Positions 4,698 to 55,665 of a stretch of DNA of 64,000 nucleotides are shown piece by piece; positions within the stretch are counted from its first letter, which is position 1, and each line of letters opens with the position of its first letter. The stretch covers positions 61,015,783-61,079,782 of the forward strand of contig CM057228.1 in the NCBI GenBank assembly GCA_029891385.1, read 5' to 3'. Source of the stretch: Erythroxylum novogranatense (Eukaryota; Streptophyta; Magnoliopsida; Malpighiales; Erythroxylaceae). The notes below the pieces were generated by a model, which was given only the letters and a program-made list of their open reading frames with translations, did no database searches and had not been told where the DNA came from. A program made the position numbers and the translations under genes.

Positions 4698-7434
4698 TTG
4701 GATCTTGGTTTTTCTAAATTTTTCTAAATTGCTTAATTGATTAATTATGTTTATTTATTGGTTTATTTTTTTTAATTTAGAATTGGAAGGATGAAGAATT
4801 GGAATTAGAAAGAAGAGTAGGCTTAGTTAGAATTGAACTAAGTAGGTTAAGTGGTGATTAGAGCCTAAAAGACCAACCAAGGGCCTAGTTGGAAAGTTAT
4901 AGTAAGTGGAGGGTAATTTTGGAAGATAAGGAGTTAATAAAAAGACAAAAATTAAGAGGAAGGAGAGTGATTGTCGTGGGCTACCCAAGGAAAGAGAGAG
5001 AAAGGGAAAAAGAGAGAGGGAAATGTGGGAGAAGTAGAGAAGAAGAAGAGAAAAATAGAAAATCCAAGGGAAAAAGGAAGGAATTTCATGGGAAGGAGAA
5101 GAGTCAAGGTCCATAAGGTATGTTCTTCATCTTCCCCATGCTTTAGTTAAGAAATAGGTTGTGTTGTGTTGGATGGAGAAACCCTAGAGAGAGAGAGGGA
5201 TTTCGTGGAGGAAGAAAAGATGGTGAAATCTTTGGATTTTTTTGGGTTTTTAAGTTAGGTTTTGGGTTTTTTAACCTATATGGACTATGGGTAGGTTGGA
5301 TTTGAGTTTAATTAGGGTTAATGTTAGTTTTGTGTGATTATGAAAAATTGGTGATTTTTCAATTGAGTTGAAATTCATGGAATTTTGTTTATGTTTAGGA
5401 AATCAAGAGCTTATCCAAGAGCAAGAGGAAGGAGGCAATTGATTTTGGATTTTCCAAGATTGTCAAGGTGGGTAATTTATTTATGATCTTTGTGTAATGA
5501 GGAAAATGCATTATGTATGCAATATGTGCTAAATGAATTGTCTGAATTTCTATGATGTGGAAATTGCTTTAAGTTGTGTTCATGTCATGTTATGCATTGA
5601 CCTTTTGATAAGATTGATAGGCCATTGAATTGAATCATGGCATTTTGTATATGAATGATTGAATTGTGAGAATGATTGTCATGCCATTGAAATTAAGTCA
5701 TTGCATTTTGATTAAATGGAAAGAAGGAAAGTATGAAAATACGAATTTATGAATAATTGAACTAAGTATGAGATTTGATTGTGTTTGGGTGAGAGAGGAA
5801 TCGTTTTGTTAGTCACTTGCACGTCGACGTTAAGCCTTCTCCCGGCTACCCGCTTGTGGCCCACGAGATCCAAAATTGGACTCGTTTCATTCACGAAGTA
5901 AACTTCGATTTCTCTATTTTGTTCACAGAACCCTCGAGCCAAATTGTGTGTGCATTAGCATTTTGATGCGTTATGATATGATGTGAATTATGCGTTATGC
6001 TTGAATGAGAAATGACATCAATTGTGTTCATGTTGATGGTGTACTGAATTATGAGATTGTGTTTGGGAATTGTGAATGCTAAGATTCCTTGTTTGTCTAC
6101 ATGGATATTTGTTTATGTATGATTATGTGGCTCATTTCTAATGGCTATGAATAAGTTAACCACTAAGCTCTGTAACTCAACCTATAAAATTTTCCTCCTC
6201 AGGTGCGGATCGAGAAGAGTAACGAACCTTGCAAGGCATTTGGGACACTCCAAGATAGCTAGGAGTCTTTTGTATTTAGTAAAATTTGGCTAGCTTTATA
6301 GGCATATCAAACATGAGCATCATTTGTATTTTGTATTAAGTTGATGTATGTGTTGATATGTAAGTAAAGCTTGTTTAAGCATTGTTTTGTTTTCAAATGA
6401 GATTGAGAATTGAGAAACTCATTTTGTATGATTATGTTTCATTAAATCATGAGATTGATGGATGACTTTATCTTTGGTTGAGAATTCCATTTGTTGCTAG
6501 TGTTAGAAGAATATGTTGAATTTGGTAAGGATGTGTGTGATGAATCCTTTGGAGTTGATTTTCAATGATGCTTGTAGTTGTTCAATGGATTTGAAGTGGT
6601 TTTTGTGGTATTGGAGAAGAGTATGAGGTAAGGGGAAGTTAGGATAGGTTTAGAAACCTTTGGAGGGGTCATGAAGGGTGAAAAATTGGTGGTACCCGTA
6701 GGTTACACGGTCTGCTCGTGTTAATTTCACACGGACCGTGTGATTTTGGGCGCAGTAACACCAATTCACCCGAAGGTTACACGGGCTGACCGTGTGATTT
6801 TCAAACGGTCTGTGCTTTTTGAGCCCCATAACGATCGAATGTTAAATTTTGGTCTTCATGAAAGTTGTAGCCCTAGATGTCTACTTGCTAACCTTCTAAA
6901 AAACGAAGTCAATCAGACTTCTATAGTGAGAGTTATGGTGTTTGCGCCAAAGTATGTTCAGTAGTAATCACAATATGAACAATATCGGATTTGTTTGGCC
7001 CTAACTCCTTCGTCCGACCTCTGAATGAGACGATTCTTGAGGCGTTAGATTCCTAACACGTTTTTATACCTCTTCATATAAATTGATAGCCTTTAGAGCT
7101 AAATTAAAAAATTTTGATGGGAAGGAAGAGAAAGGTCGGCTTGGAGGGCATGATTGGGCCATGAACCTACTTCGATTTCTTAAGCATATCTTGAGCCATA
7201 AGGATCCGATTGAGGTGGTTCTTTTTTCTAAATGAACTAGAGACTAAGAGCTCCATCTTGAAGGAGTAAATTGTGATTTTTTTTTATTTTGCAAATTTTT
7301 TTGTGTGGGCTCGCTTTTGTAGCTTGAGATGTCATGCGAATGAGAATTCTTCGATGAGGATCAAAGAGCTTGGAAACACGCTTGTGTTTTTTGACTCTGG
7401 TGTGATAGTTGGGCTTCGGAAATAGGGCCCAACA
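4698..7434 (+). repeat. Element A right LTR (2737 bp)
   Basis: The LTR begins TGTTGG after the polypurine tract and ends CCAACA, a perfect six-base inverted terminus. Parts of it (purine-rich stretch 4985-5070, aaggtgggtaat at 5466, cccggctacccgc at 5840, the cttcatgaaagttgtag block at 6855) align by eye with the LTR of element F. A palindrome cluster sits at 6703-6816. Open frames inside it show no protein family and are taken as chance. No gene of other origin is seen here. Confidence 0.85.
6703..6816 (+). repeat. Phased palindromes in element A right LTR
   Basis: Four copies of an ACACGG-CCGTGT palindrome have centres near 6713, 6735, 6787 and 6809. The second is a perfect 17-mer (6727-6743) with 8-base arms and one central base; the first and third have mismatched middles and the fourth is degenerate. 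Spacing is 22, 52 and 22 bp. The same position in element F's LTR holds a different palindrome with nearly the same spacing. Confidence 0.85.
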
Positions 7435-8799
7435 ATACACACGTTTCACACACACATTAATAACTTTGCACAATTACAAGCCTTCATTTATGTACACATT
7501 TGTATATGGAATATGTATAATGCATCTTCATGACATTCCCAGGTATCTTTTCATTATTCTGATCACATTATTAGTCTTATATTGAAACTCACCTAAGTAA
7601 AATTTGTACTTAGGGTTTGTACCTTTAATAAACACTTGGAATCTAATTTCATAACCCAATGATTCATTTCAGATTTTTCTCCAAACATTGACTTTTGGGC
7701 TTACTATTTCTTATCATTTAGACAATGCAAATGGGGAAATTTGAGAACACTTTCTTCTAGACAATTTCCCTCCTATCTCTTAAGTTCCTAATGACACTAA
7801 GACCATTCAATTTGATTTAGTATTTCAGAATTTATAATCCAAATAATTTTGAATGGTTTTTATATTAAGACAGTACACTATACTCCACTTCCATCCAGAA
7901 ATTGAAAGTATTAAAGACTGCATCAAAATTCAAATTCTGCATGTACTCTATAGCTCTGTTTCTCTAGTTTACTCAAAATCTCATTTGGATGACTACAAAA
8001 TAAGATATAACCCAAATACCCCAAGCATGTTCAATGATATCATACCAGTTCATACTACTCCAACAAATTCCCTCATTTTCCTTCAATCAATACTTTTTAT
8101 TTCAATTAAAAAAACTACCAACTCCTATGAAAGGATAGAAAAATGTGTTAAGAATCTATTGGTTCAAGAATTACTTCACGTGGAAGTTGGATGCAAAGTT
8201 ATGGCTAAAAGAATCAAATATGTTTAGAGCTGGAAAACCCTTCAGGTGGCGAAACGTTGATGAAGAAACGACGTGTGATCGCATCTCTCCTTATTGCAAT
8301 CACACCTGAGGCTATTCCCAGGGTGCGGTCGCATCTTTCCCTATTGCCATTGCATCTAAGGCTATTTGCAGGGTGCGCCATCGTATCCGGCTTCGTCACG
8401 ATTATGACAGAGGCTTTTATACATCATGAGCAAAATTACTAAATTATAATGATCATATCTCTCAAATACAACATCCAAAATTTTCATATTTTATACCATT
8501 TGAAATGTAAAAGAAAGATATATGAATTTCATCAAAATAATTTTGTCAAAATCTTCCTATATCAATACAGTTTTTCCCTTGAAATCAGAACATAAAATAT
8601 GCATTTATCCAACAGTGTATTACACCCAGTTTCTAATTTCATGTCAAAATTTGAGACTCTTACAAATAAAATTTAAATTTTATGTCTTCATGAAAAATTT
8701 AGCCATGTGTATCTAGTTTAATCCAAATTAGCAATTATCTCATTTAGATAACTATAGAAAAGGTTATGGGTAAAGGACTGAAGCATACTTAGTGAACAT
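7435..8799 (-). repeat. Element K LTR, left segment (old gypsy LTR)
   Basis: No gene is seen. This AT-rich stretch runs from the right end of A to the left end of C and must be continuous with 55671-57134 before C inserted, since C is bounded by AACAT on both sides (8795-8799 and 55666-55670). It carries a palindrome cluster like those of other LTRs here. The outer end of the LTR is not seen, probably because A inserted into it. The assignment to K rests on context and on the clear gypsy terminus at 57134. Confidence 0.6.
8274..8386. repeat. Phased palindromes in element K LTR
   Basis: Copies of a TGCGATCGCA-like palindrome, most followed by TCT, have centres at 8278.5, 8299.5, 8328.5, 8349.5 and about 8379. 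Spacing is 21, 29, 21 and about 30 bp. No copy is perfect any more: the changes at CpG sites (for example TGCAATCACA) look like decay by deamination. Confidence 0.75.
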
Positions 8800-9864
8800 T
8801 GTAAACGATCTAGAAGGGGGGTTGAATAGATCTTTAAACCTTTTCGTAAATTTCTACAAGAAATCAGAAGTTAATTCACACAAAAACAAGTTAAACAAAT
8901 TTAAATGCAAAGAATAGGGAAGAAGAGCAAACACTGCTTTTATAGAGATTCGGTGCTAAGACCTACGTCCTCTACCTAAGCTCCACCTTAGGATTTGGCA
9001 AACCACTTTACTGCACACTTTTTAGTTTAGTGTGAACTCTTACAACACCACTTGATTTCCGACTCAAGCTACCTTTACAACTGATTTGTTTTCCGGCACA
9101 AATCCTACCTTCCAAGTGATTTTTCACTAATCACTCAACTCACAATAATAATGAGATAAAGATGAAAGAACAATGCTCAATACAGATTTGAAACAAGCTA
9201 AGAGTAATATAGAGCAAGTTTGGAACAATAGTGGAATTCTTTAGCTTTTTGGACTTCAGTACATTGATCCCTTGACTTTCCACTATTTATCTCGAGACTA
9301 GAGATGAATATAGCTGTTGTAAATCCTCTTCTTGCCGTTGCATGATTTCTTATGGACGTTGCTTTATTTCTTCCTTTCCATTTAGGAATGAATCGGACAC
9401 ATCTTGTTCAGTTCTACCTGATAGTCGACTAGTCGAGCTATTATAGTCGACTAGTATCAACGTTTTTTGCTGCAGGTTTCATCTCCACTCTTCGATCAAT
9501 CGACTAGTTCCATGATAGTCGACTAGTGCTCCTATCCTCTTGATTTGTAGTCGACTTGCAACATCTTACTCGACTTGTTTCAAGCCCCATCTGATGATCC
9601 TTAATTTATTAGTTGACTTGTGGTATGTTAGTCGACTTGTGCTGACTCCAACGGATATATTTATTCGGATCTTCCCATAATTTTCATGTTTAAGTCTCTA
9701 TCATGTTGAAGATTACTTCCTTCTTGATTTCACCATGATTTATAATGCTTTCTAGATTTATTTTAATCCAAAACACCTGAAATAATTTCTTAACAAATTC
9801 TATACATTTTATTATTATCAAAACATAAGTGAGATTTAATTTGTCAACCACCATTGGTCCAACA
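8800..9864 (-). repeat. Element C 3' LTR
   Basis: It pairs with 54603-55665. In plus orientation it starts TGTAAACGATC and ends GGTCCAACA. It differs from its partner by substitutions and small indels. It contains eight palindrome copies at 9422-9638 and a possible TATA-like ATAAATAG on the minus strand near 9283. Confidence 0.95.
9422..9638. repeat. Four pairs of AGTCGACT palindromes in element C LTR
   Basis: Eight copies of TAGTCGACTA or AGTCGACTTG have centres at 9426.5, 9448.5, 9501.5, 9520.5, 9552.5, 9571.5, 9614.5 and 9633.5. They form four pairs with internal spacing of 22, 19, 19 and 19 bp; the pairs are 53, 32 and 43 bp apart. The other LTR (55226-55441) has the same layout but with TTGA decay and one pair collapsed to a single copy. 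Confidence 0.9.
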
Positions 9865-10317
9865 ATCTCCCCCTTTTTGATAATGACAAAACCCTTAGAA
9901 ATTGTATAAGAAATGAAAACAAAGAAACATTGATTAAGGTTTTATGCCTTGTCTTTTTGGTTAGATTGTCTCCCCCTTAATCATATAAATCATTGAATTT
10001 AATAACCTTGTAAAACAAATTTATAAAGGTAATTTGAAATCAAGATAGACTCAAATCAAAGACAATTATAACAAACTCCCCCTTAATCAATTGACTAAAG
10101 AATATCCAATTTCCAAATTTACTCCCCCTTTTTGTCATAATCAAAACAATCAGTATGAAGATAAAATAGAGGAAACACAAATAGTCATGGACACAAATAT
10201 GAAGAGGAAAAAAAATTATCGCAATGACATTAAATAGAAGAACAAACCATCAAACACCAATAGTCTTAAATAACCATCCAAGACAAGATGAAAATCACAA
10301 ACAATATGAAGAAACAT
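9865..10317 (-). promoter_or_regulatory. Element C 3' untranslated region with four polypurine tracts
   Basis: On the minus strand this leads into the 3' LTR. The purine tract AAAAAGGGGGAG directly at the LTR (9867-9881) is repeated at 9970-9983, 10076-10089 and 10122-10137 (plus strand CTCCCCCTT). Multiple polypurine tracts before the 3' LTR are a known trait of Sireviruses. No coding capacity is seen. The right end meets the broken left LTR of D. Confidence 0.8.
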
Positions 10318-14560: not shown

Positions 14561-16513
14561 TGTAGGAAAATCCCGGGATGTACATCACATGTACAAGGTA
14601 CAAAAAACAAAAATTTTTGTCGCCGGGACCTTCCCAAAGGCCAGGATCTTTGTGTCTGTATGAAGACTCAAACCTAAATAGCCAATAGAGACTATCTCTA
14701 AAGGTATCCACGCAGAGATCAGAAAACCTAACCGGGATAAACGCCTTTGACCCGGAAATAGCTAGAACAAAGTAAAGGCTGCTAGACCTACCTACATCCT
14801 TGGAGAGCTTGGATCCTTTGGAGAAGGAGATGAAACTTGGAGAACTAGAGAGATGATCGTGAGCTTCCTTTGAAAGCAACTTGAAAACTCTTTTCATAAG
14901 CCTCCTCTCAAAGCCACGAATATCAACTCTCTTCCTTTTCTCCATAATTCTTTCTCAATGATGAAGATGAAGGAAGCATCGTATATCCTCACTTCCTTTC
15001 ACCAACGAGCATCACCTATCTCACTTTCTTTTTGTCATTTAGTCATTTAATGACTTTGGTGACAAGGCTTCAAAAGAAGCTTCTAATGCTTCTTCTTCAA
15101 CCCACGTAGCTTATATATATATATAATAATTAATTAATTAATTTACTTAATTAATTAATTAGAATATAATTGCTAAGGTCGATCTAAATTGGAATGGGTC
15201 TCTGGCCTCATTGGGCCCCCGATCAAAGCGTTAGGAGACCTTTCTTAGCAATATCAATGTCGCGATCTCATCGGGACATATCCCGATCTCATCGGGATCC
15301 ATTTAATCTAATGCTCTCCATAATTGGAACTCGTCCAATTACTATTTACTGATTCTCGAATCACTCTTATCGTGTGACCCTTTAGGTTCCGGTTATGTTG
15401 GCCATTTAGATTAACAATTAATCTGAGCAAGTCATGAGCGGCGTCTAGCAACACATCATGACCCCCAATTGACCGGAAAGCAATCGGTTTGATGAATTCA
15501 TCACGAACCAGATCACGAACCCTTCCATAGACAATTGTCGTGCAATTCGTCCTTTCACCATCCTATACCCCACTTGGTTATGAGTATGGTCAAAGTGTCA
15601 ACTCTCACTAGACTGAGTCTAGCCCAAGTGATATTAGTTCTCATCCTAGGACTCATTACTCCATATGTCAATGAGGACACTCTTCATGACATATTTGCTG
15701 GCCAGCCTTACAAGTAATGATCCCGACAAGAGGCCATGGGTATCTCTTCTGCTAATCCAGAAGTGGTGAATCCTTTATTGGCTACTCAATTACCTTCGAA
15801 TACCTCAAGCTATACCCAAGCACCACCTTATGAGCGACCTCTGGAAGGCAACAAGGAATGGAGTCAAAGCACAGAATCAGTATCCAAGATATCCTTGAGT
15901 ACCTCAAGTCTAAGGATACTTACACCATTGCTATGATGAGATTATCACTGACACTAGAAGAAGATATCCATGTGATGATCTCATGGCAGGTCATCCAATG
16001 TACTTACTACCGCTAGTAAGCATCCACATGTCAACTCTAAATATCTCATATTTACAGTTTCTGAGATCCACTACTTGATCCAATCAAGGAATATGACATG
16101 TGCTAATGCATGGGATTAATGATGTCCATCTCATTAATCCTATGACTAGGGAGAATTTAGATACTGACATAATTGCACATGATAGGAATCTCAGTAGTAT
16201 GATCACATCATAATTTCCTTCATGCTATGTCATATATCATGGACTTCATTAATTCGATTAAAGATCCAATCAATTCATAAACAATGTTCATGAATATCAA
16301 ATTAATGAAATATGCCTTTCTTTATTTATTCATAAAGTCTATACACGACTTTGAATAAAACGCGCTAAAGGGGATTGCCTTTAGGGCACTACTCTAACAA
16401 TCTAACGGTACTGGACATCCATAAGTCGACTTACACTGGTGAACAAGGCGACTTATCAGTACCGATCAAGCATAAGTCGACTTACACATGGTACAAGTCG
16501 ACTTACACTTACA
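14561..16513 (-). repeat. Element G 3' LTR
   Basis: It is paired with 22272-24233. A TATATATATATATAA run at about 15112-15127 could be the TATA box on the minus strand, followed there by an AATT/TTAA-rich near-palindrome (about 15128-15163). The minus-strand start is a 114-bp segment with four palindromes (16400-16513). Just inside it lies TGTTAGAGTAGTGCCC (end at 16399), which looks like the usual copia LTR start and resembles the start of solo LTR J. Confidence 0.93.
16419..16509. repeat. Two pairs of TAAGTCGACTTA palindromes at the edge of element G LTR
   Basis: Centres are at 16427.5, 16449.5, 16478.5 and 16499.5, so spacing is 22, 29 and 21 bp. The partner LTR has the same four copies at 24139-24229. 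The second copy is AAGGCGACTT, one base off. Confidence 0.92.
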
Positions 16514-16530: not shown

Positions 16531-16569
16531 AAAGCCAATCGCCTTGGTATCTAATACCATAAGCGCGTC

Positions 16570-20235: not shown

Positions 20236-22258
20236 ACACTGAAAGACTTCTTCAATCAACCTAAGTACGATAGAGAGAAAGAATGCTAGAATAGAAATGC
20301 CTGCATGATCATAAGGACTTGCATGACATGCATATGGCTCCCACTAGTTTCTTAGAATCCATAACCCTCTTTACGAATCCAAAGAAACAATATGACATAA
20401 TGTCTAGTGGGTCGATATCAGACATTGCTAAGAGTGACCTTGGGTTTACCAACAAGCCATAACTTAGGTCAATCGGTAGGTATCGGTCATACCAATTTCA
20501 TCATCGATAACCGACATTAAGAATGACCTTGAGGTTAGCTCAACAAGCCACCTTATGTCTCGGGAGGTATCAGACATACCAATTACATCTTAGACACAAC
20601 TATCGTCCAGTGCTATCAACTTGTTGATGTGTGCACTTACATTGGGTTATCAACTCTTTGATGCGCGTACATCGATGTACCTACCCAATTTAGCCTCTGT
20701 CACGTTGACCTTGAGGTTAGCTCAACAAATCAACGCTTCTAGGAAAACCGACCCATTAATCCGAAAATCTCATTTTCATGGTTCGAACATATTCGTATAG
20801 AGTGAGCTTGAGGTTAGCTCAACAACCCAACCCTAGAAGAACTCTAGTTCTTACCATATTAATGGAAGGCGTTAGTTTTCATATTAGGAGGATTTGAACT
20901 CTAGACTCCAAGCTGAAGGATTATAGTCGCCAGGACTATATGGAATGATTGAGGTTTCATCAATCAAATTGAATCAATCCTTATAATCATCCATCATCCA
21001 ACCTGAGCATGTCATAAGTCGCCTTACATCGAATGCAAGTTAAGCCTTATCTTTGCTTCACACACAAGTCGACTTATACGATATAAGTCGCCTTACGGTA
21101 ATACCTAGAATAAGTCGACGTATGTACAATACAAGTCGACTTATCCAGCAAGAATTGCTATACTTTCTAATCGGCTAATTCCTCAATCCATGTAATCCTA
21201 GTTCACAATACCAACATACCTTAGGTAATATCTTGTTAATTTGATGTACCAATGAACACTTCATTGTTTCATGTTTGCCATATCTGATCAAACCATACAT
21301 GAAAAGCTTAAAACCGAGTCATTACTCAAAGATATCCAAACAATTTAGGAACACCAAATTATCACCCTAAGCATCTCAAGCTAGTCTATACGTTATCAAA
21401 ATTACTTCGGCACAAGCCACAAAAACTATGACGGCCAAAACAAGCAAGATAATGAAATACACTAACGAGACGCTAATGTGACCTATTCGGCATCCGAAAA
21501 ATCTTGGAAAACCAATTTCAAGCAATTCAGTTTGGAAAGAATACAAAATCAAGATAACATATTTTCAATCACATTAAAAATGGTCCAAGGCATTGGAACT
21601 GAAAAATAAACATTCAATTATGCCAAGCAAAACAGTCCTAGCAAGTTTCACAAAACTGCCAAGTTCTGTACATTACTCGAAATAATCATTGAAACAATTT
21701 CAATAAATTCTACGAAAATTAAACATGTTACTACATGTTCAGAAAATTCTTCATGAATGTTTTGAGGATTTATAGCCATCAAAAACTCAGCCAACCTAAG
21801 CAACAAAACCGATTCAAAATCTGTGTTCATCAACACAGCTATTCCCAAAAGCATAGAATAAATTCGTGAATAAATAGTAAATCACCTTGAAAACACTTCT
21901 CCATCCACATAGACATTCAGAAACATCTTAGGGACATGTTGGTGAAGAAAAATTCGAAAAACAATATTTCTAGAATTTATTATTGAATTTATACACATGC
22001 CGGTTCACAGAATGTGTCACAAAACAACTTCTAGAACCTTAGGGAATAAAATAGCAAAACTATATCAAATCAAATTGATAAATTCTCATCTTTCACAGAA
22101 ATATTCTATAACATGTTATGAACAATTCTGGGCAGAAAAATTTTGAAAAATATATCCCTATACAGAATCGAAATTGGGACAGCACACATGCATCAACGTC
22201 AAATTCACATAGGGCTTCCGATCTAGCTAGGGTTTTAGCTTCATACACGACACAAGTG
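20236..22258 (-). other. Element G 5' leader, untranslated
   Basis: No coding pattern is found over about 2 kb between the primer site and gag. It holds four copies of a gaccttgaggttagctcaac repeat (20436-20458, 20525-20549, 20707-20728, 20804-20825), and six AAGTCGACTT-like palindromes at 21013-21145. Short open frames here have no recognisable family. Confidence 0.8.
21013..21145. repeat. Three pairs of AAGTCGACTT palindromes in element G leader
   Basis: Centres are at 21020.5, about 21041.5, 21070.5, 21089.5, 21116.5 and 21137.5, giving pairs of 21, 19 and 21 bp separated by 29 and 27 bp. It is the same motif and rule as in this element's LTR, but at a separate place in the element. Confidence 0.88.
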
Positions 22259-22270: not shown

Positions 22271-22271
22271 C

Positions 22272-24233
22272 TGTAGGAAAATCCCGGGATGTACATCACA
22301 TGTACAAGGTGCGGAAAACAAAAATTTTTGTCGCCGGGACCTTCCCGAAGGCCAGGATCTATGTGTCTGTATGAAGACTCAAACCTAAATAGCCAATAGA
22401 GACTATCTCTAAAGGTATCCACGCAGAGATCAGAAAACCTAACCGGGATAAACGCCTTTGACCCGGAAATAGCTAGAACAAAGTAAAGGCTGCTAGACCC
22501 TACCTCTGTCCTTGGAGAGCTTGGATCACTGGAGAAGGAGATGAAACTTGGAGAACTAGAGAGATGATCGTGAGCTTCCTTTGAAAGCAACTTGAAAACT
22601 CTTTTCATAAGCCTCCTCTCAAAGCCACGAATATCAACTCTCTTCCTTTTCTCCATAATTCTTTCTCAATGATGAAGATGAAGGAAGCATCGTATATCCT
22701 CACTTCCTTTCACCAACGAGCATCACCTATCTCACTTTCTTTTTGTCATTTAGTCATTTAATGACTTTGGTGACAAGGCTTCCAAAAGAAGCTTCTAATG
22801 CTTCTTCTTCAACCCACGTAGCTTACATATATATATAATAATTAATTAATTAATTTACTTAATTAATTAATTAGAATATAATTGCTAAGGTCCAGTCCAA
22901 CTGGGAATTGGTCCTACCTAAGCCTCATGGGCCCCGATCAAAGCGCTCCGGAGACCTTTCTTAGCAATATCAATGTCGCGATCTCATCGGGACATATCCC
23001 GATCTCATCGGGATCCATTTAATCCTAATGCTCTCCATAATTGGAACTATGTCCAATTACTATTTTACAGATTCTCTGAATTACTCTTATGCGTGTGACC
23101 CTTTAGGTTCCCGGTTATGTTGGCCACTTAGATTAACAATTAATCTGAGCAAGTCATGAGCGGCGTCTAGCAACACATCATGACCCCCAATTGACCGGAA
23201 AGTAATCGGTTTGATGAATTCATCACGAACCAGATCACGAACCCTTCCATAGACAATTGCCGTGCAATTCATCCTTTCACCATCCTATACCCCACTTGGT
23301 TATGAGTATGGTCAAAGTGTCAACTCTCACTAGACTGAGTCTAGCCCAAGTGATATTAGTTCTCGTCCTAGGACTCATTACTCCATATGTCAATGAGGAC
23401 ACTCTTCATGACATATTTGCTGGCCAGCCTTACAAGTAATGATCCCGACAAGAGGCCATGGGTATCTCTTCTGCTAATCCAGAAGTGGTGAATCCTTTAT
23501 TGGCTACTCAATTACCTTCGAATACCTCAAGCTGTACCCAAGCACCACCCTATGAGCGACCTCTGGAAGGCAACAAGGAATGGAGTCAAAGCACAGAATC
23601 AGTATCCAAGATATCCTTGAGTACCTCAAGTCTAAGGATACTTGCACCATTGCTATGATGAGATTATCACTGACACTAGAAGAAGATATCCATGTGATGA
23701 TCTCATGGCAGGTCATCCAATGTACTTACTACCGCTAGTAAGCATCCACATGTCAACTCTAAATATCTCATATTTACAGTTTCTGAGATCCACTACTTGA
23801 TCCAATTAAGGAATATGACATGTGCTAATCATGGGATTAATGATGTCCATCTCATTAATCCTATGACTAGGAGAATTTGAATCTTGACATAATTGCACAT
23901 GATAGGAATCTCAGTAGTATGATCACATCATAATTTCCTTCATGCTATGTCATATATCATGGACTTCATTAATTCGATTAAAGATCCAATCAATTCATAA
24001 ACACTGTTCATGAATATCAAATTAATGAAATATGCCTTTCTTTATTTATTCATAAAGTCTATACACGACTTTGAATAAAACGCGCTAAAGGGGATTGCCT
24101 TTAGGGCACTACTCTAACAATCTAACGGTACTGGACATCCATAAGTCGACTTACACTAGTGAACAAGGCGACTTATCAGTACCGATCAAGCATAAGTCGA
24201 CTTACACATGGTACAAGTCGACTTACACTTACA
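22272..24233 (-). repeat. Element G 5' LTR
   Basis: Partner of 14561-16513. The right flank is GATAG, the duplicated target. Four palindromes lie at 24139-24229. It has extra bases against its partner at several places (for example 22890-22935). Confidence 0.95.
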
Positions 24234-31417: not shown

Positions 31418-32858
31418 TGATCGTCGGCTTATCGTTCAATATTAAAATTGATCCTCAGAAACTGGTCAAATAAAATTTATACCAAGGATTGCAATACAGG
31501 ATGCAACCTCGGTCGACTCTCGAGGAACGATGTACTAGCGATCTGACTAGCCTAATGTTTGAATGATGCATGCAATTAAAGCAATAAAAGGGGGTTTGAT
31601 TTGATTAACTAAAAATTAAACTAAGCCAAAGTAAGAATAAATATTTTGGGATTTTGAAAGATAAGGCAATTGAAATTAAAGGGACTAAAAAACAATTAAT
31701 AAAACTCTCACGAAAATGTAGCTCGGGTTATCATCGTTCAAAGTAATATCGGGGTTTGAAATCCACTAAGTTTGAAAGCTAAACCTTAACAACTCGTTAA
31801 GTCCAAGAATTAATTAATCAACTCGAGTAATTAAAACTTGTTAAAACCTTAGTGTATGTATAGAATGATTAATGCAATAAATCGATCAAACAATAACACA
31901 ACCAACTCAATCAAACACAACTAGGCGATTAAATTGATTAATGCAATCATCCAGTGATATACATGAACTCCATGTATTTAAGCACAACATTCAATAATAA
32001 TCAATCCATAACATATATCAAAGTTTAACACCCTACTAAACTATAGCAAGGTTCATTCGCCATACAATGCAATAATACCAACTCGGTTATTACAAAACAT
32101 GGCGTAAATCTAAACTATGAACGATTACCCTTGAAGCTCATGGAACTCAGACCATTGCTACATTTCGGGAGAATGGAACCTTAGCCGACCATGGTGCGGA
32201 TGAAATCTTATTTGTTGAAGGATCACCTCGGTTCATGTTTCCAACGACGAACGTAACGCAGATGAAAGCGATGGAAGAGATGAATGAGACTTGCGTCGTC
32301 CGGCTGAAGCGGCGAATCTGCAAAACAAACAGAAAACGAAAACTATTAGAAGCGAAGAAAAGAAGAGAAGAAAACTCTGTGCGGCCGTCCCGTTTTTGCC
32401 CTAAATGGCAAGGTTTTATAGGGATGCGTGCGGGCCGGGTCGAAACAGTGGAACTTTTGCCAAATATAGGCCGGATTATCCGACTTTCGCTGCGGCTAAT
32501 GGCTTCGTTCGCTGCAGCGAACGTTGAATGGTCACTTCATGGCGTAAAGAATTCAATACCATTAATTAGCCTCGGCGAATGGAGAGTTTAGTTAAGCCCG
32601 GTGAATCTCTGGCGTGTTGACTTGTTGAATGTTGACTCCTTTGGTCCTACAAAATACAACCCATTCGCAGTATCAATTGTCCCAATAAAAATTATGCAAA
32701 ATTAATGACAAATGACAACAAAATACTAACAATGTGCAATTTATCAAAAATCAATGTGCGGGACCAAAATAAGCATAAAAATCATAAATCAGGAGTCAAC
32801 AAATGCATAATTACTAAAGAAAACGGGCCTAATTTATAATATAATTTTGGTCCAATCA
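31418..32858 (-). repeat. Element H 5' LTR
   Basis: Partner of 25327-26773, followed by the duplicated AGGAG. It keeps a perfect 18-base palindrome CGTTCGCTGCAGCGAACG at 32506-32523. Related half-matching copies lie near 32492, 32542, 32573 and 32595. Confidence 0.95.
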
Positions 32859-32863: not shown

Positions 32864-34278
32864 TCTTCATGAAGTTTGTAGTAGAGGTTTAGATCTTTCC
32901 AATGATATAGATTTTGTCACTTTCGAACTTAGGATGAAGAAGTTATGGTGTGGGAAACACATTCAATTACTGTTCATGCTGATATTTTTACTGTTCTATT
33001 GGTCATTATAGGAGCTATTCATTTGAGTGAGTTTTTACCTCCTTTAATGATGGATTTGAGTTTTGCATCCTTAATGAAACTTGTAGAGCATCTTGTTATC
33101 TTTCCATTGAGGTATAATTTGTAATTTTTAGGATTTGGAGTAAGAAGTTATGGGAGATGGCAGATAATAGCTAAGGTTCATTCTGATGTTCATATCGCTT
33201 GTGAGTTTATGATAGCCTTGATGATTGAGAAATAAATTCATGGTTTGATGAATCAATTAAGCTAGAAATTGTGAAGTTGGTGAGTTGAACTTGGAGTTTG
33301 AAGGGTTATGAAGTGTTTAGGCTTGGGAATGAATAATTTTGTGAAGTGTACAAGTGGTTATGAAGTTGGGTTTAAGGTGAGATGTATTGGAAGAGGAATT
33401 GGAGTTTTGAAGTTTGGCATGTCCGTTAAACAGACATGGATGTCCGTTAAACGGACAGCCTCGGGTGAAAAACACCCCTTAGCCTGCCCATGTCCGTTAG
33501 ACGGACTTGCATGTCCGTTTAACGGACATTTTCGAAGCATTTGGTACACTTTCACCCGAATGTGTCCGTTAAACGGACATGGCTGTCCGTTTAACGGACA
33601 GCTACGGGAAAACGTGTGAATTTGGAGAATGTTAGAGGCCGAATCTCGTTTTATGGTCTTCATGAGGGTTGTAGATATAGATGTCTTCTTTCAAATGGTC
33701 AAAGAACGAATACAATCCTACTTCTATATTAAAAGTTATGGAAATCGCGCCAAAAGAGTTTGAATTTGATTTTGGAAGTGAACATAGTCTATTTCTTTGG
33801 GCATAACTCCCTCATCCGACCTCCAATTGAGGTGAGACTTGAACCATTAGTTTTCTAAGACATATATATTTCTCCCTACAAACATTTGTACCATTTGGAG
33901 TTAAATTGAAGAAGTTTACATTAAAGTAAGTGAATGGTCAGTTTGGAGGTCATGTTTACAGTATGAGATCTTTTGGGTATTTTAAGCATATTTTGAGTTA
34001 TATAGCTCCGTTTGAGGTGATTCTTATTTTAAATCAAACTTGAAACATAAAGCTACAACTTATATGAATAAGTCAACTCATGATTTTGGTGTTTAAATAG
34101 CGTGCTCTCGCCACGAATGTAGAGTTACAACTAAGGATCCTGTAAGGAAGTAAGCACGAGGCTTTAGGACTCTGGAATTAGGCTCTGGAATTGGGTCCAA
34201 TAGATGTGGACTTAAAGCAAGAGTAAGAGTATTAAGTTATAAGCAGTTGGGGTCTGGTCTCTGGATCGGGTTCCAACA
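32864..34278 (+). repeat. Element F LTR, third segment
   Basis: It continues F's LTR after H and ends GGGTTCCAACA. The block gtcttcatgagggttgtag at about 33656 matches A's right LTR at 6853. The palindrome cassette lies before it. No gene is seen; the open frames across the palindromes are by-products of the repeat. Confidence 0.85.
33420..33600. repeat. Three pairs of TGTCCGTTAAACGGACA palindromes in element F LTR
   Basis: Six 17-base copies lie at 33420-33436, 33441-33457, 33491-33507, 33512-33528, 33563-33579 and 33584-33600. Four are perfect (8-base arms, one central base). The first has one change (cagaca) and the third two (gttagacggact). Centre spacing is 21, 50, 21, 51 and 21 bp. Confidence 0.97.
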
Positions 34279-38586: not shown

Positions 38587-38785
38587 CGTGGCCACGATGT
38601 CGCAAGGCGCTCGTCATGGCGAAATGGATGGGTCGTTACTTGTGGCGAGTGGGGCGAGACGTCGCGGCGGGCGTAAAATTTTACGCCGTGACGCGTCTTT
38701 CTTCCTACGTCGCGGCGAGCGGAAGAAACGGGTTCGCCGCGGTGGACGATTCCCACGCCGCGGCGAGGACTTCTGCGTCGCGGCA
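38587..38785. repeat. Array of CGTCGCGGCG-type palindromes in element D LTR
   Basis: Copies include perfect CGTGGCCACG (38587-38596) and CGCCGCGGCG (38756-38765). Near-palindromes are centred at about 38616.5, 38643, 38664.5, 38688.5, 38712.5, 38739.5 and 38780.5. Spacing is 20-27 bp, less regular than in other families. The region is strikingly GC- and CpG-rich inside an AT-rich LTR. Confidence 0.8.
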
Positions 38786-45122: not shown

Positions 45123-47510
45123 TGTAACATCCCGTCACCGATGGGATGTGTACAGTTCATTACATTCGTATTTGTGCATGTGCATGCATTATAGTATATT
45201 GTATAATTAGCCTTTGTACGTACATGCATGTATGACATATTTCCGATTTGATTTGGAAATTTATTTGGGTTAATTGATCTGTGAGAAATTTAATTGGTAT
45301 AAGAAATGAGAAATTGGAGATTGTAAAATGAAATCTGGAAATGATTAGGGCAAGTATGATAATTAGGTCAAATTAGGTTCGAGAATTTGATTTGAGTTAG
45401 AAATGAGATTTGGGAAGTTGAATTGTGAAATTGGAGTATATGCTAATGAGTTTTCTATTTTTATGGATTTATAGAAATTTTTCTGGAATTTTCAGAGCAA
45501 TAGGCCCGGACTGAAAAATTTGATAAATGACTGGTTGATTGAATATCCGGTTCCGAAATTGATTATCCTATGGCACGGACAGGTTAGAAATTTGATTTGA
45601 GGAATTATGGTTTAGCCATTACAATTCGGAAGAAATTAAAATTTGAAATTGATTTGAGGTGGTTTGGATCCGGACTGGTGGTAAGCATTCTAGCCAAACA
45701 AGCCCTTGTCTTTATATATATATATATATATATATATATGCCCTACCTTTGAATTTCTTCTCCCACGACATTTGCTTCTTCTTCTTCGTTCTCTTCTTCC
45801 TCTTCTTGACCAATTTCTCTTAGAGATTTGAGGTTCTTCATCAAGTAAGTTACTTGTAACTTGTTTTATATAGTTTGATTGGTTGATTTATAGAGTTTAT
45901 TAGAGGATTAAACATGAAAATCTAAGGATTTGGGTTTAAGATTTCCGAAAGTTGGTTTTCAGTGGTTTTAGGGTTGAATTTTAGGGAATTTGATTGTTTG
46001 ATGAAATAGAAACTAAAGACTTGTTGTATGATATGTATGGATTTATTTATGAGTGGTTTGTGAGAAGAAAATCTGGATTTGGAACTGAAATCTGTCGAAA
46101 ATCTGGGTTTTTCGGGCGTGTAATTGCTTTCGCCGCGACGTGCGCGACGTCTGAAGAACACGCCATGACGTGGGGAAGCCTGGGCTGGCGAGGAGGACAA
46201 GGCATACGTCGAACGAACAGCGTCGTCGTCATGACGTGGGATGCCCGATTCGCCGCGGCGTTATTTCGCCCGATAATGAAATTAGGGTTTTAATATTTGG
46301 AGTTTAGGCAATTGAGGATCTATTTGGCTATGGATTAAATTCAATTTGGAGATTTTGAATTTGGAAATTAGAAATTTAGTTCGGGAATTAAGGATTGAGA
46401 TCGGAAATTGAATTAGGTGGAAATGTCATAATTTGCATAGTATGTACATGATTTGATTCATATGCATAATTAAGCATCGAATTGGTACCGATAATAATGT
46501 TATGTATATTTTGATTGATATAGCGGCTCAGCGGATGCCGATTATCCGACATAGGGAGACTTCGGCAGAGCTTCGGAAGTTACGAGGTGAGTAACCTAGT
46601 TGGTTTCTCAATCTCTAATGTGCTATGTGCCTTGTATGTGAATTATTTGTGATTACGATTAAATGATTTGCATGAGATATATCGGTATAAATTGTGAAAG
46701 CATGCTAGGCATGATTAGAAATCGATGAAGCGGTTGTGGTGGAGCACATTACGATCGAGTGGAGCTACAAGCTCATCAATTGTGATAAGTGAAAAGGATT
46801 AGTGAATACCCGAGGGCTCTCCTATCCTTAGTGCGCGTGGTGTAGTGTATACCCGAGGGCTCTCTACCCCGAAAACGCGATTACGTGTGATGTGCCCGTA
46901 AATGGGATAACTCGATGCCCATCACAACACTAATAATGGCTGGAAATCATTGTGCATACGATGCGTGTTTATGCTATGGACTAATTGCGGTGTGTGATTT
47001 TGATGTTGTGAATTTCGAGTTATGATATGTGTTGCTTTTGTACGCAATTGTGCGTAATGCATGAATTGGGTAAACCATCGATGATGGTTACTCATTGAGT
47101 TTCACAAACTCACCCAAATTGCGATTATATTTTTCAGAGACGGTAATGTGACTCTAGCTCCGGATTTTGAGACTTTTCTGCTTTGTATGTGCAAGAAGAG
47201 GAGCATGGCCCATGTGTCGGTCATTGGGGATCCTTTGGGATATTTTGGGATGACCTAGATAGAGCTTCTTGTTTATTTTAGACATATGTAGTTGTAAATT
47301 ATGACGGATATTGTATTTAGGATTCTGAATGCAATGAGAAGTACTCTTTGGTTTTGAAATTTAGTGATTGTGATCTTCTTTGCTTTGATTATATTGATGC
47401 CATGAGGTTTTAATAGAATCGATTGTTTGGTAGTGCACCCTCATCGTAAGGTGTGTATCAGTGCGACCTACGGCGTGTCGGTGTATGCTCTACTACGGTG
47501 AGGGGCTACA
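45123..47510 (+). repeat. Element E 5' LTR
   Basis: Starts with a hairpin ACATCCC/GGGATGT inside the first 25 bases. A (TA)n run at 45713-45739 may contain the TATA box. The palindrome region is 46131-46260, with perfect CGTCATGACG (46227-46236) and CGCCGCGGCG (46251-46260). The primer site after it is damaged (tggtaatatcgagc, 47512-47525). Confidence 0.95.
46131..46260. repeat. CpG palindromes in element E 5' LTR
   Basis: CGCCGCGACG, CGCCATGACG, CGTCATGACG and CGCCGCGGCG have centres at 46135.5, 46165.5, 46231.5 and 46255.5; degenerate copies lie near 46191 and 46211. The 3' LTR equivalent (53053-53210) differs by about 20 extra bases and includes perfect ACGTCGCGACGT at 53176-53187. Confidence 0.75.
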
Positions 47511-48845: not shown

Positions 48846-50454
48846 TTGATATGGGTTGCGGTGAGTACACCTTTGGGTAGTACCACCGCTTTAGGCGAGA
48901 TCTCAGGGATGCCCGATTCTAGTAGATCGGTGATATTGAGTGCAGATTTGATTGTGATGCCTCTTCGAGAGATTGAGGTGATTTTGGGGATGGACTGGCT
49001 CACTGCCCATAGGGCGATTATAGATTGCTATACTAAGGAGGTTGTATTAGAGTCTCTGGTCGGTAGAAACATTTTTGAGGTGTTAGTCAGCGATGCCAGC
49101 CAGGATGATTTCGTTTGTGAGTGCTTTGAGATTGATGCGAGGTGGCTGTGAGGCTTGTTTGGAGCATGTGGTAGACTCTAGAGTGCAACAGAGGTTGCAG
49201 GATGTCCCTGTGATCTGGGAGTTCCAGATGTGTTTCCGAGGAGTTCTGGGTTTGCCACGGATCGGGAGGCGAGTTCGAGATAGACCTCGTTCCAGGTACC
49301 GCTCCTATATCGATACCTCCGTATAGGATGGCACCGGTGGAACTGAGGGAGCTTAAGGCTCAGCTTCAGGAGTTATTGGATAAGGGGTTCATTAGGCCGA
49401 GTGTGTCGCCGTGGGGAGCTCCGGTATTGTTTGTGAAGAAGAAGGACGGGACTATGAGGCTTTGCATCGATTATAGGCAGCTTAATCGGGTTACTGTCAA
49501 GAATAAGTACCCACTGCCTAGGATCGATGATCTCTTTGATCAGTTGCAGGGAGCTCAGGTGTTTACCAAATTGGATTTGAGGTCTGGTTACTATCAGTTG
49601 AAGATCGCAGAGGCCGATGTGCCTAAGAGTGCTTTCAGGAGCAGGTATGGACATTACGAGTTTTTAGTGATGCCATTCGGGTTGACCAATGCCCCGGCAG
49701 CCTTCATGGCCTTGATGAATAGGGTCTTTCAGCCATACCTGGATCAGTTTGTGATCGTATTCATTGATGATATCTTGGTATATTCGAGGTCTAGACAGGA
49801 GCATGCAAAGCATCTGAGAGTTATGCTGCAGATTATGAGAGACAGGCATCTGTATGCCAAATTCACTAAGTGTGAATTTTGGCTGGATGAGGTGGTGTTT
49901 CTAGGCCACATTGTGTCTGGTGAGGGTATCCGGGTGGATCCTCACAAAATTGAGGCGGTGAGGAGTTGGGAGATTCCGAGGCGATATGCGAGTTGAGGAG
50001 TTTCCTCGGATTGGCAGGATATTACCGGAGGTTTGTCGAGGGGTTTTCTGTGATCTCCGCCCCTTTGACAAGACTTCTGAGGAAGAGTGTGGCCTTCAGA
50101 TGGACAGATGAATGTCAGAGGAGTTTCGATGAGTTGATACATCGGTTGACTATGGCGCCGGTGTTAGCCTTGCCATCTGGATCAGGAGGTTTCGAGGTTT
50201 ATAGTGATGCTTCGCAGCTAGGTTTAGGCTGTGTTCTGATGCAGCATGGGAGAGTCATAGCGTATGCATCGAGACATTTGAGAGCCCATGAGGGTAATTA
50301 TCCCGTGCATGACTTGGAGTTAGCGGCTGTGGTGTTTGCTCTGAAGATCTGGAGACATTATTTGTATGGGGAGACGTTCCAGATCTTCACCGACCATAAG
50401 AGCTTGAGGTACTTGTTGAGTCACGGAGCTGAATCGAAGCGAGGAGATGGTTAG
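48846..50454 (+). pseudogene. pol: Element E protease, RT and RNase H pseudogene
   Basis: The protease C-terminal half reads VILGMDWLTAHRAIIDCYT (about 48978-49035). RT is open from 49328 to 49996 with [24 protein letters not shown] and [10 protein letters not shown] frameshift at about 49980 moves the connection and RNase H to 49966-50454, with [33 protein letters not shown] and [10 protein letters not shown]. The frame then fails. The RT core has no visible inactivating change, and it is the best preserved RT of the D/E family here. Confidence 0.88.
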
Positions 50455-52074: not shown

Positions 52075-54464
52075 TGTAACATCCCGTCACCGATGGGATG
52101 TGCGATTCATTACATTAAAGATTTGTACATGTGCATGCATTATAGTATATTGTATAATTGGCCTTTATGCGTACATGCATGTATGACATATTTCCGATTT
52201 GATTTGGAAATTTATTTGGGTTAATTGATCATGAGAAATTTAATTGGTATAAGAAATGAGAAATTGGAGATTGTAAAATGAAATCTGGAAATGATTAGGG
52301 CAAGTATGATAATTAGGTCAAATTAGGTTCGAGAATTTGATTTGAGTTAGAAATGAGATTTGGGAAGTTGAATTGTGAAATTGGAGTATATGCTAATGAG
52401 TTTTCTATTTTGTGGATTTATAGAAATTTTACGGAATTTTGAGACAATAGGCGGATGGAAAATTTGATAAATGGTAGTTGATTGAATATCCGGTTCGAAA
52501 TTGATTATCTATGGCAGACAGGTTAGAAATTTGATTTGAGGAATTATGGTTTAGCCATTAGAATTAGGAAGAAATTAGAATTTGAAATTGATTTGAGGTG
52601 GTTTGGATCCGGATGGTGGTAAGCATTCTAGCCAAACAAGCCCTTGTCTTTATATATATATATATATATATGCCCTACCTTTAATTTCTTCTCCCACGAC
52701 ATTTGCTTCTTCTTCTTTCTCTTCTTCCTCTTCTTGACCAATTTCTCTTGGAGATTTGAGGTTCTTCATCAAGTAAGTTACTTCTAACTTGTTTTATATA
52801 GTTTGATTGGTTGATTTATAGAGTTTATTAGAGGATTAAACATGAAAATCTAAGGATTTGGGTTTAAGATTTCGAAAGTTGGTTTCAGTGATTTTAGGGT
52901 TGAATTTTAGGAATTTGATTGTTTGATGAAATAGAAACTAAAGACTTGTTGTATGATATGTATGGATTTATTTAGGAGTGGTTTGTGAGAAGAAAATCTG
53001 GATTTGGGCTGAAATCATCGAAAATCTGGGTTTTAAGGCGTGTCATAATTGCTTTCGTTGACGCGGCGCGACGTCTGAAGAACACGCCATGACGAACAAT
53101 TGTTTCAGTCGTGCATGACGTGGGCGGCCTTATTGGCGAGGAGGACAAGGCATACATCGCAACGAACGCGTGCGTACGTCGCGACGTGGGATGTCCGATT
53201 CGCCGCGGCGTTATTTCGCCCGATAATGAAATTAGGGTTTTAATATTTGGAGTTTAGGCAATTGAGGATCTATTTGGCTATGGATTAAATTCAATTTGAG
53301 ATTTTGAATTTGGAAATTAGAAATTTAGTTTGGGAATTAAGGATTGAGATCGGAAATTGAATTAGGTGGAAATGTCATAATTTGCATAGTATGTACATGA
53401 TTTGATTCATATGCATAATTAAGCATCGAATTGGTACCGATAATAATGTTATGTATATTTTGATTGATATAGCGGCTCAGCGGATCGCCGATTATCGACA
53501 TAGGGAGACTTCCAAGAGTTCGGAAGTTACGAGGTGAGTAACCTAGTTGGTTTCTCAATCTCTAATGTGCTATGTGCCTTGTATGTGAATTATTTGTGAT
53601 TACGATTAAATGATTTGCATGAGATATATCGGTATAAATTGTGAAAGCATCTAGGCATGATTAGAAATCGATGGCGATAGTTGTGATTGGGCACATTACG
53701 ATCCGAGTGGAGCTACAAGCTCATCAATTGTGATAAGTGAAAAGGATTAGTGAATACCGGAGGACTCTCCTATCCCTAGTGCTTGCGTGGGCTGTAGTGT
53801 ATACCCGAGGGCTCTCCTACCCCGAAAATGCGATTACGTGTGATGTGCCCGAAATGGGATAACTCGGCCTTGATCCAACACTAATAATGAACTGGAAATC
53901 ATTATGCATACGATGCGTGTTTATGCTATGGACTAACTTGCCCGATGTGTGATTTTGATGTTGTGAATTTCGAGTTATGATATGTGTTGCTTTATGCGCA
54001 ATTGTGCGTAATGCATGAATTGGGTAAACCATCGATGATGGTTACTCATTGAGTTTATAAACTCACCCAAATTGCGACTATTTTTCAGAGACGGGTAGTG
54101 TGACTCTAGCTCGGATTTTGAGACTTTTCTGCTTGTGTGTCTTTGGCAAGAGGAGCATGGCCCATGTGTCGGTCATTGGGGATCCTTTGGGATATTTTGG
54201 GATGACCTAGATAGAGCTTCTTGTTTATTTTAGACATATGTAGTTGTAAATTATGACCGGATATTGTATTTAGGATTTACGAATGCAATGAGAAATACTC
54301 TTTGGTTTCGAAATTTAGTGATTGTGATCTTACTGCTTTGATTATATTGATGCCATGAGGTTTTAATAGAATCGATTGTTTGGTAGTGCACCCTCATCGT
54401 AAGGTGTGTATCGGTACGACCTACGGGCGTATCGGTGTATGCTCTACGGTAAGGGGGCGCTACA
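52075..54464 (+). repeat. Element E 3' LTR
   Basis: Begins after the purine tract AGGAGGGGAGAAT. Compared with the 5' LTR it is mostly the same sequence with many small losses, often of C or CT, and a shorter (TA)n run (52651-52671). Confidence 0.95.
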
Positions 54465-54600: not shown

Positions 54601-54602
54601 AT

Positions 54603-55665
54603 TGTAAACGATCTAGAAGGGGGGGTTGAATAGATCTTTAAACCTTTTCGTAAAGTTCTACAAAAAATCAGAAGGTAATTCACACAAAAACAAGTTAAAC
54701 AAATTTAAATGCAAAGAATAGAGAAGAAAAGCAAACACTATTTTTATAAAGGTTCGGTGCTAAGACCTATGTCCTCTACCTAAGCTCCCACTTAAGATTT
54801 GGCAAACCACTTTACTGCACACTTTTTAGTTTAGTGTGAACTCTTATAACACCACTTGATTTTCGGCTCAAGTTATCTTTACAACTGATTTGTTTTTCGG
54901 CACAAATCCCACCTCCCAAGTGAATTTTCACTAATCACTCAACTCACAATAATAATGACATAAAGATGAAAGAACAATGCTCAATACAAATTTGAAACAA
55001 GATAAGAGCAATGTAGAATAAGTTTGGAACAATAGTGGAATTCTTTAGCTTTTTGGACTTCAGTATATAGATCCCTTGACTTTCCACTATTTATCTGGAG
55101 ACTAGAGATGAATATATCCGTTGTAAATCCTCTTCTAGCCGTTGCATGATTTCTTATGGACGTTGCTTGATTTCTTCCTTTCCATTTATAAATGATTCAG
55201 ACACATCTTGTTCAGCTCTACCTGATAGTCGACTAGTTGAGCTATTATAGTTGACTAGTATCAACGTTTTTTGCTGCAGGTTTCATCTCCACTCTTCGAT
55301 CAGTCGACTAGTTCCATGATAGTCGACTAGTGCTCCTATCCTCTTGATTTGTAGTTGACTTGTTTCAAGCCCCATCTGATGATCCTTAATTTATTAGATC
55401 CTTAATTTATTAATCGACTTGTGGTATGTTGGTCGACTTGTGCTGAATCCAACGGATATATTTATTCGGATCTTCCCATAATCTTCACGTTTAATTCTCT
55501 ATCATGTTGAAGATTACTTCCTTCTTGATTTCACCATGATTTATAATGCTTTCTAGAATTATTTCAATCCAAAACACCTGAAATAATTTCTTAACAAATT
55601 TTACACATTTTATTATTATCAAAACATAAGTGGGATTTAATTTGTCAACCACCATTGGTCCAACA
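54603..55665 (-). repeat. Element C 5' LTR
   Basis: Partner of 8800-9864. It has a tandem copy of gatccttaatttatta (55381-55396 and 55397-55412), and lacks about 19 bases between two palindromes of pair three (near 55353). Several TCGA centres have become TTGA. Confidence 0.95.

What the first reader, a model, noticed from the sequence alone, without database searches (positions are those of the whole stretch)
6703..55441. A shared spacing rule: paired CpG palindromes about 21 bp apart in six unrelated LTR families
Gypsy A, F and K, copia C and G and Athila-like H all carry clustered short palindromes in the LTR and/or untranslated leader. The motif differs (ACACGG/CCGTGT, TGTCCGTT/AACGGACA, TGCGATCGCA, TAGTCGACTA, TAAGTCGACTTA, CGTTCGCTG/CAGCGAACG). 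The layout does not: copies come in pairs with centres 19-22 bp apart, most often 21, two helical turns. Pair-to-pair gaps are about 27-32 or 43-53 bp. Nearly every copy holds at least one CpG. Convergence on spacing with free motif sequence suggests selection for same-face binding of a multimer, or for regular hairpins in RNA. I know of CpG-rich palindromes in plant LTRs in general, but not of this spacing rule.
Basis: partly seen in the sequence, partly recalled or inferred. Interest (0 to 1): 0.88.

Follow-up and report, generated by a model that had tools for sequence, protein, structure and literature searches.

The report
Spaced palindrome arrays in plant retrotransposons
Several jumping-gene families in this plant carry arrays of their own short mirror-image DNA motif placed at preferred distances, often two turns of the DNA helix apart, which looks like a landing pad for a DNA-binding protein, although other families in the same genome keep different distances.

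Summary
The arrays are real and not chance. In genome-wide pair searches, neighbouring copies lie 19-22 bp apart at 57 of 77 (AAGTCGACTT), 54 of 82 (TAGTCGACTA), 56 of 57 (GTCCGTT-N-AACGGAC) and 18 of 23 (TGCGATCGCA) places read; a flat spread over the 31 distances searched would give 13%. In the first two families the distances within arrays have their best period, of all from 6 to 26 bp, at 10.3 and 10.4 bp. The rule is not universal: CACGATCGTG (6 of 50; peaks 16, 20, 31, 34) and CGTCGCGACG (11 of 50; peak 24), both met in blind samples, do not obey it. Tandem duplication explains part of the pattern. Two LTR-like stretches that align downstream of their arrays carry different motifs. The TAGTCGACTA arrays belong to one Sirevirus, where palindromic 'repeated motif' boxes were described in 2010; arrays in a copia with a non-Sirevirus PPT and in gypsy-like stretches, and the spacing, were not found in eight paper searches. 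Best reading: sites for a dimeric DNA-binding factor, held on one helix face in some families. RNA structure is the main rival.

The parts
8800..9864 (-). 3' LTR of a Sirevirus (copia); 5-bp flank AACAT at 8795-8799
   Evidence: PPT/LTR junction AGGGGGAG-AT|TG on the minus strand and four CTCCCCCT up to about 10130 (read by eye); junction positions
9422..9638 (.). array of 8 TAGTCGACTA/TAGTCGACTT sites with up to 2 mismatches, distances 22,53,19,32,19,43,19, about 230-440 bp inside the LTR
54603..55665 (-). 5' LTR of the same Sirevirus, PBS-like sequence to its left, 5-bp flank AACAT at 55666-55670; 986 of 1042 aligned bases identical to the 3' LTR
55226..55439 (.). the same array in the 5' LTR, 7 sites found, several with CpG to TpG change
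14561..16513 (-). 3' LTR of copia element C (5-bp flank GATAG 14556-14560); PPT AGTGGGAG, not the Sirevirus octamer
16422..16505 (.). TAAGTCGACTTA array, 4 sites (22,29,21), within the first ~100 bp of the LTR
22272..24233 (-). 5' LTR of copia C (5-bp flank GATAG 24234-24238), 1906 of 1949 aligned bases identical to the 3' LTR
24142..24225 (.). TAAGTCGACTTA array in the 5' LTR (22,29,21)
21015..21143 (.). second AAGTCGACTT array of copia C, in the leader about 1.1 kb after the 5' LTR (50,19,27,21)
33420..33600 (+). F array: three pairs of TGTCCGTTNAACGGACA, each pair 21 bp, pair starts 71-72 bp apart; LTR bounds not determined
6703..6830 (+). A array of ACACGG/CCGTGT palindromes at the place that corresponds to the F array; LTR bounds not determined
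8274..8385 (.). decayed TGCGATCGCA-like array (21,29,21,31) that looks like a duplicated 50-bp unit
32506..32523 (.). CGTTCGCTGCAGCGAACG palindrome with one degenerate neighbour 22 bp away
38660..38785 (.). CGTCGCGACG/CGCCGCGGCG array in or next to a gypsy LTR (24,24,27,21,20 with up to 3 mismatches); an exception to the 21-bp rule
46131..46260 (.). degenerate CGTCGCGACG array in the left LTR of an element with LTRs at about 45.3-47.3 and 52.2-54.3 kb
53064..53210 (.). CGTCGCGACG array in the right LTR of the same element (21,70,22,24)

Best explanation
Each family carries in its LTR, and copia C also in its leader, a homotypic array of sites for a dimeric, sequence-specific DNA-binding factor; the sites are palindromic because the factor is a dimer. 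Neighbouring dimers touch or share a partner, which sets the distance: close packing at about 20-24 bp, and in some families a fixed helix face (2, 3, 4 or 5 turns). Arrays grow by duplication of one- or two-site units; selection then keeps motif and distance while the DNA between sites drifts. Since the motifs hold CpG, binding is probably sensitive to cytosine methylation, which would couple the array to silencing. Shown: arrays, distances, period in two motifs, diverse spacers, motif difference at corresponding places. Inferred: the factor, its dimer form, transcription as output, methylation sensitivity.
For: Distances leave gaps within the range searched: for exact AAGTCGACTT pairs none of 77 at 12-17, 23-25 or 33-42; for TAGTCGACTA none of 82 at 12-18, 24-27 or 34-39. 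Period 10.3 and 10.4 bp is the best of 6-26 bp in the two motifs. The 20-22 bp distance is shared by motifs of 10, 12 and 17 bp, so it is set centre to centre. F motif: 55 of 57 places at exactly 21 bp, 19 classes of spacer in 56 of them. Site columns identical in 161 of 180 comparisons, spacer columns in 133 of 249, in three related leaders, gapped columns left out (columns were chosen by likeness to the motif, which favours this). A and F align downstream of their arrays but carry different motifs. Where both members of an AAGTCGACTT pair have asymmetric flanks, both point the same way in 13 of 13 local pairs, as expected of oriented DNA sites rather than hairpin arms.
Against: Two of six motifs are not phased: CGTCGCGACG (24) and CACGATCGTG (16 and 34). 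Within AAGTCGACTT the common 28 bp is 2.7 turns, and its phase score 0.472 barely exceeds the highest null draw, 0.47. A degenerate copy in L003 gives a 23-bp distance. No factor is identified. Copies within a family share descent, so places are not independent, and only the first listed places were read. The two phased motifs share the core AGTCGACT and may be one case. Spacers are more alike than shuffled ones in all 15 arrays looked at, clearly so in 6, the F array and copia C among them. F pairs are mostly perfect inverted repeats (centres A..T), which suits a hairpin as well.
Confidence: 0.52

Rival explanations
1. RNA or hairpin function: neighbouring palindromes pair with each other (or pair with pair) in the transcript, giving regular stems for packaging, dimerisation or as small-RNA sources; constant spacing keeps pairs in register.
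For: F array folds far better than shuffles (z -9.5 and -10.2), copia C z -5.1, A array z -3.7, each with 0 of 200 shuffles as good. F pairs are mostly perfect inverted repeats. Small-RNA hotspots at palindromes of maize Sirevirus LTRs are reported (passages of PMC10760457 and PMC5311732).
Against: Sirevirus array folds weakly (z -2.4 and -1.9; 4 and 12 of 200 shuffles as good). Centre-to-centre distance stays near 21 whatever the arm length. The equally hairpin-fit T..A centre pair was not seen, by eye, in the rows listed; from the counts independence would give about 41 such pairs genome-wide (my arithmetic, centres C and G ignored; common descent could also explain it). A 10.3-10.4 bp period is that of B-DNA.
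Confidence: 0.22
2. Plain tandem duplication: arrays grow by slippage or template switching of one unit and the spacing is inherited, without selection on distance.
For: Identical spacers in L024 and L001, a 42-bp unit repeated in L001; spacer identity against shuffled 0.77/0.48 at window 8260-8400, 0.67/0.38 in the F array, 0.70/0.40 (one comparison) in the copia C LTR; all 15 arrays lie above shuffled. F copies descend from one ancestor, so exact 21 bp could be inertia.
Against: In 9 of the 15 arrays the excess over shuffled spacers is at most 0.13, e.g. L019 0.38/0.37, L012 0.42/0.40. In related leaders spacer lengths differ (20/22, 26/28/32), yet none of the 77 exact pairs read is at 23-25. 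Similar distances recur with unrelated motifs.
Confidence: 0.2
3. Rotational positioning of nucleosomes: CpG-rich steps at multiples of the helix repeat set how LTR DNA lies on the histone core.
For: Period 10.3-10.4 bp.
Against: It does not call for repeated copies of one palindrome. No dinucleotide test was done here.
Confidence: 0.05

Closest known systems
Repeated motif (RM) boxes of Sirevirus LTRs (Bousios et al. 2010, PMC2829016; one section, one of seven text parts and passages seen)
   Same: Many near-identical CpG palindromes clustered in the upper half of the LTR and in a second non-coding region, motif differing per element, upstream of a TATA box; no common factor identified there either.
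   Different: That paper finds them only in Sireviruses and not in its classic copia set; here they are in a copia with a classic PPT and in gypsy-like stretches. The word 'spacing' occurs once in its text, in a reference. Its core CGG-CCG is absent from TAGTCGACTA and AAGTCGACTT. There the TATA box follows closely; here a cTATAAAAg lies about 480 bp beyond the array.
[quoted passage not shown] 2016; not held; known here only from passages in PMC10760457 and PMC5311732)
   Same: Palindrome clusters in the regulatory part of the LTR.
   Different: Those passages are about small RNAs, structure and variation; whether the paper treats spacing could not be checked.
Symmetric or tandem activator boxes of Tnt1-type LTRs (named in passages of PMC2829016; otherwise recalled)
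   Same: Repeated, partly symmetric activator sites in the LTR.
   Different: Arrays of two or three motifs by that paper; spacing not compared here.
Element-specific motif arrays bound by transposon-encoded proteins (En/Spm TnpA, VANDAL VANC; recalled, not tested)
   Same: Family-specific repeated motifs whose binding counters silencing.
   Different: DNA transposons; no such protein is known to me for these LTR elements.

Membership tests
Sirevirus (element with LTRs 8800-9864 and 54603-55665) | PPT AGGGGGAG followed by AT and then TG of the 3' LTR | tested here: met
   minus strand of window 9860-9873 against PMC2829016
Sirevirus (element with LTRs 8800-9864 and 54603-55665) | several identical PPT octamers in the linker | tested here: met
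   four CTCCCCCT on the plus strand between 9865 and about 10130, read by eye
Sirevirus (element with LTRs 8800-9864 and 54603-55665) | Sirevirus reverse transcriptase | not tested
   no RT of this element was compared
Sirevirus RM boxes (TAGTCGACTA array) | at least eight copies, starting 200-400 bp into the LTR | tested here: met
   8 sites with up to 2 mismatches, three of them perfect, about 230-440 bp inside the LTR
Sirevirus RM boxes (TAGTCGACTA array) | CGG-CCG core | tested here: not met
   core is GTCGAC; the paper's own Tnd-1 also lacks the core
Sirevirus (copia C, 14561-24233) | PPT AGGGGGAG | tested here: not met
   AGTGGGAG at the junction, a change listed in PMC2829016 as common in classic copia; its RT was not compared
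Two-turn (19-22 bp) spacing rule | excess of neighbours at 19-22 bp in the family | tested here: inconclusive
   met in four of six motifs, not in CACGATCGTG (6 of 50) and CGTCGCGACG (11 of 50)
Helically phased binding array (AAGTCGACTT and TAGTCGACTA) | distances favour multiples of 10.3-10.5 bp | tested here: met
   narrowly for AAGTCGACTT under the strictest null
Helically phased binding array (CACGATCGTG and CGTCGCGACG) | distances favour multiples of 10.3-10.5 bp | tested here: not met
   mean cosine 0.09 and 0.08 at 10.45 bp
Helically phased binding array | a protein bound to the sites | not testable with these tools
   no footprint or DAP-seq data available

The most novel reading that the evidence does not exclude
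A spacing grammar, independent of motif, recurs across copia and gypsy LTR retrotransposons: palindromic CpG sites sit two or three helical turns apart, and when an LTR lineage swaps its motif (A against F) the layout is rebuilt around the new one.
Probability: 0.22. Interest if true: 0.85.

Novelty: new variant of a known kind. Interest (0 to 1): 0.62.

Why it matters
Palindromic LTR boxes were reported in 2010 for Sireviruses without a factor that reads them. Finding them in a copia with a classic PPT and in gypsy-like LTR stretches, with quantised distances and in two motifs a 10.3-10.4 bp period, turns an unexplained feature into a testable cis-regulatory code: spacing mutants, DAP-seq and methylation assays follow directly. 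The AAGTCGACTT pair pattern alone has 35,019 forward and 35,699 reverse matches in this genome (some pairs count on both strands), so whatever reads it has very many sites.

Tried and rejected
Universal 21-bp rule: rejected after CACGATCGTG and CGTCGCGACG. Six independent families: reduced, since the TAGTCGACTA arrays are two LTRs of one element (same 5-bp flanks AACAT) and share a core with copia C. ATGACGTCAT in L021 (20 bp): set aside as part of a short tandem repeat seen by eye. Motif strings in the literature: 149 papers hold one of six strings, 40 listed, none whose title or abstract start is about LTRs. Spacing in the literature: none found among the listed titles; passages of PMC6911290 and PMC12786077 do not treat it; subscription papers and Bousios 2016 are not held. 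The ACACGG/CCGTGT pair search did not complete, so the A motif is untested genome-wide. No other plant genome was searched.

Rows dropped: one search used 77 places after both-strand duplicates and two rows spanning an inner copy were left out; one of those two is in the layouts. One search used 57 places and 82, one search used 50 and all 23, one search used 50; apart these are only the first places listed in the genome. Rows were read by eye: four are not at 21 bp (17, 20, 20, 44).
Full report
SETTING. The window lies in a 1.30-Gb genome (C5:61015783-61079782) and is a nest of LTR retrotransposons. An outer Sirevirus has LTRs at 8800-9864 and 54603-55665 with the same 5-bp flank AACAT; copia C (14561-24233) has flanks GATAG; gypsy-type pol pieces lie at 2050-4599, 35830-36654 and, as reverse transcriptase, at 49214-49993.

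OBSERVATION. The arrays at the stated places exist. Perfect palindromes are few because many copies have decayed, often CpG to TpG, as the two LTRs of the Sirevirus show side by side. The pattern is strong for TAGTCGACTA, TAAGTCGACTTA and TGTCCGTTNAACGGACA, visible in the decayed TGCGATCGCA-like array, loose for ACACGG/CCGTGT, and thin for CGTTCGCTGCAGCGAACG. Clusters of similar palindromes: 63 in the window and 20 blind loci, 19 in one shuffled draw.

GENOME-WIDE TEST. Two exact copies with a variable gap were searched in the whole genome. Counts, forward/reverse, then backward-letter control: AAGTCGACTTA..AAGTCGACTT 35,019/35,699, control 0/0; GTCCGTTAAACGGAC..GTCCGTTNAACGGAC 2,472/2,483, control 0/0; TAGTCGACTAG..TAGTCGACTA 1,982/1,994, control 80/68; TGCGATCGCA 23/23, control 0/0; CACGATCGTG 244/244, control 0/0; CGTCGCGACG 8,067/8,067, control 0/0. 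Centre distances of 12-42 bp were open to match (16-46 for GTCCGTT). Distances were read from the listed places: only the first of the genome, except TGCGATCGCA, which is complete. Share at 19-22 bp: 57/77, 56/57, 54/82, 18/23, 6/50, 11/50 in the order just given. AAGTCGACTT has a second mode at 26-32 and none at 23-25, though a degenerate copy in L003 gives 23. TAGTCGACTA has a second mode at 28-33, mostly 31. CACGATCGTG has 16 (9 places), 20 (5), 31 (7) and 34 (13); CGTCGCGACG peaks at 24 (13).

HELICAL PERIOD. Within-array distances up to 160 bp, one entry per distinct layout (22 and 24 layouts), give the best period between 6 and 26 bp at 10.3 bp for AAGTCGACTT (mean cosine 0.47) and 10.4 bp for TAGTCGACTA (0.77). 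None of 500 draws reached these values under any of three nulls, including one that keeps the short gaps and redraws only those over 24 bp; its highest draw for AAGTCGACTT was 0.47, just short of the observed 0.472, and 0.58 for TAGTCGACTA. Layouts of related elements are not independent, and the two motifs share the core AGTCGACT.

TANDEM DUPLICATION. It is present: identical spacers in L024 and L001, a duplicated 50-bp unit at 8260-8400. Spacers are more alike than shuffled ones in all 15 arrays examined; the excess is at most 0.13 in nine and 0.15-0.30 in six, among them the F array (0.67 against 0.38). F-motif pairs keep 21 bp with 19 classes of spacer among 56 places, though common descent could hold that length. 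In three related leaders, site columns are identical in 161 of 180 comparisons, spacer columns in 133 of 249, flanks in 92 of 120 and 64 of 105; the site columns were defined by the motif, which flatters them.

MOTIF TURNOVER. The stretches behind the A and F arrays align over some 250 bases while the palindromes before them differ; by eye, GGGTGAAAAA and TTCACCCGAA within the two arrays correspond as well. This is the best evidence that layout and motif evolve separately, but it is one pair of sequences.

DNA OR RNA. For DNA: the B-DNA period, a distance that does not follow arm length, and same-direction flanks in 13 of 13 AAGTCGACTT pairs in which both sites are asymmetric. For RNA: very stable folds of the F array (z -9.5, -10.2), copia C (-5.1) and A (-3.7); the Sirevirus array is near ordinary (-2.4, -1.9). 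In F the centre bases are A..T in 43 of 56 A-first places and no T..A was seen by eye. This orders the pair but does not decide between the two.

KNOWN. PMC2829016 (section 9, part of the text and passages) describes palindromic CpG repeated motifs in 13 Sireviruses and says they are absent from its classic copia set. The window's Sirevirus fits that description except for the CGG-CCG core. Copia C has the PPT AGTGGGAG, a classic form by that paper, and yet carries an array at the very start of its LTR and another in its leader; the gypsy-like stretches carry arrays too. No paper on the spacing was found among the listings; the 2016 paper on maize palindromes was not held.

VERDICT. Real, partly known, with a new quantitative layer: preferred distances in four of six tested motifs, a helix period in two, and clear exceptions.

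Noticed in passing
window 8795-55670: One Sirevirus with identical 5-bp flanks (AACAT) holds most of the window inside it: its LTRs are some 45 kb apart because gypsy and copia elements are nested within.
   Followed up: partly
window 14556-24238: Copia C has both LTRs (1906 of 1949 aligned bases identical) and 5-bp flanks GATAG; its palindromes lie within the first 100 bp of the LTR and again in the leader.
   Followed up: yes
window 15259-15298 and 22975-23014: A second, unrelated palindrome pair (CCCGAT..ATCGGG type) 21 bp apart inside the copia C LTR; by eye it may be a 21-bp tandem copy.
   Followed up: no
window about 33463-33558 and 6676-6775: GGGTGAA and TTCACCC arms flank palindrome pairs in both A and F and could enclose them in a longer inverted repeat (by eye).
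   Followed up: no
L005 around 3063-3267: Tandem repeat with a 65-bp period.
   Followed up: no
G000, CACGATCGTG family: Two layouts in one motif family, 16/34 and 20/31, whose sums are nearly the same (50 and 51 bp); 22+28 in AAGTCGACTT gives 50 too.
   Followed up: partly
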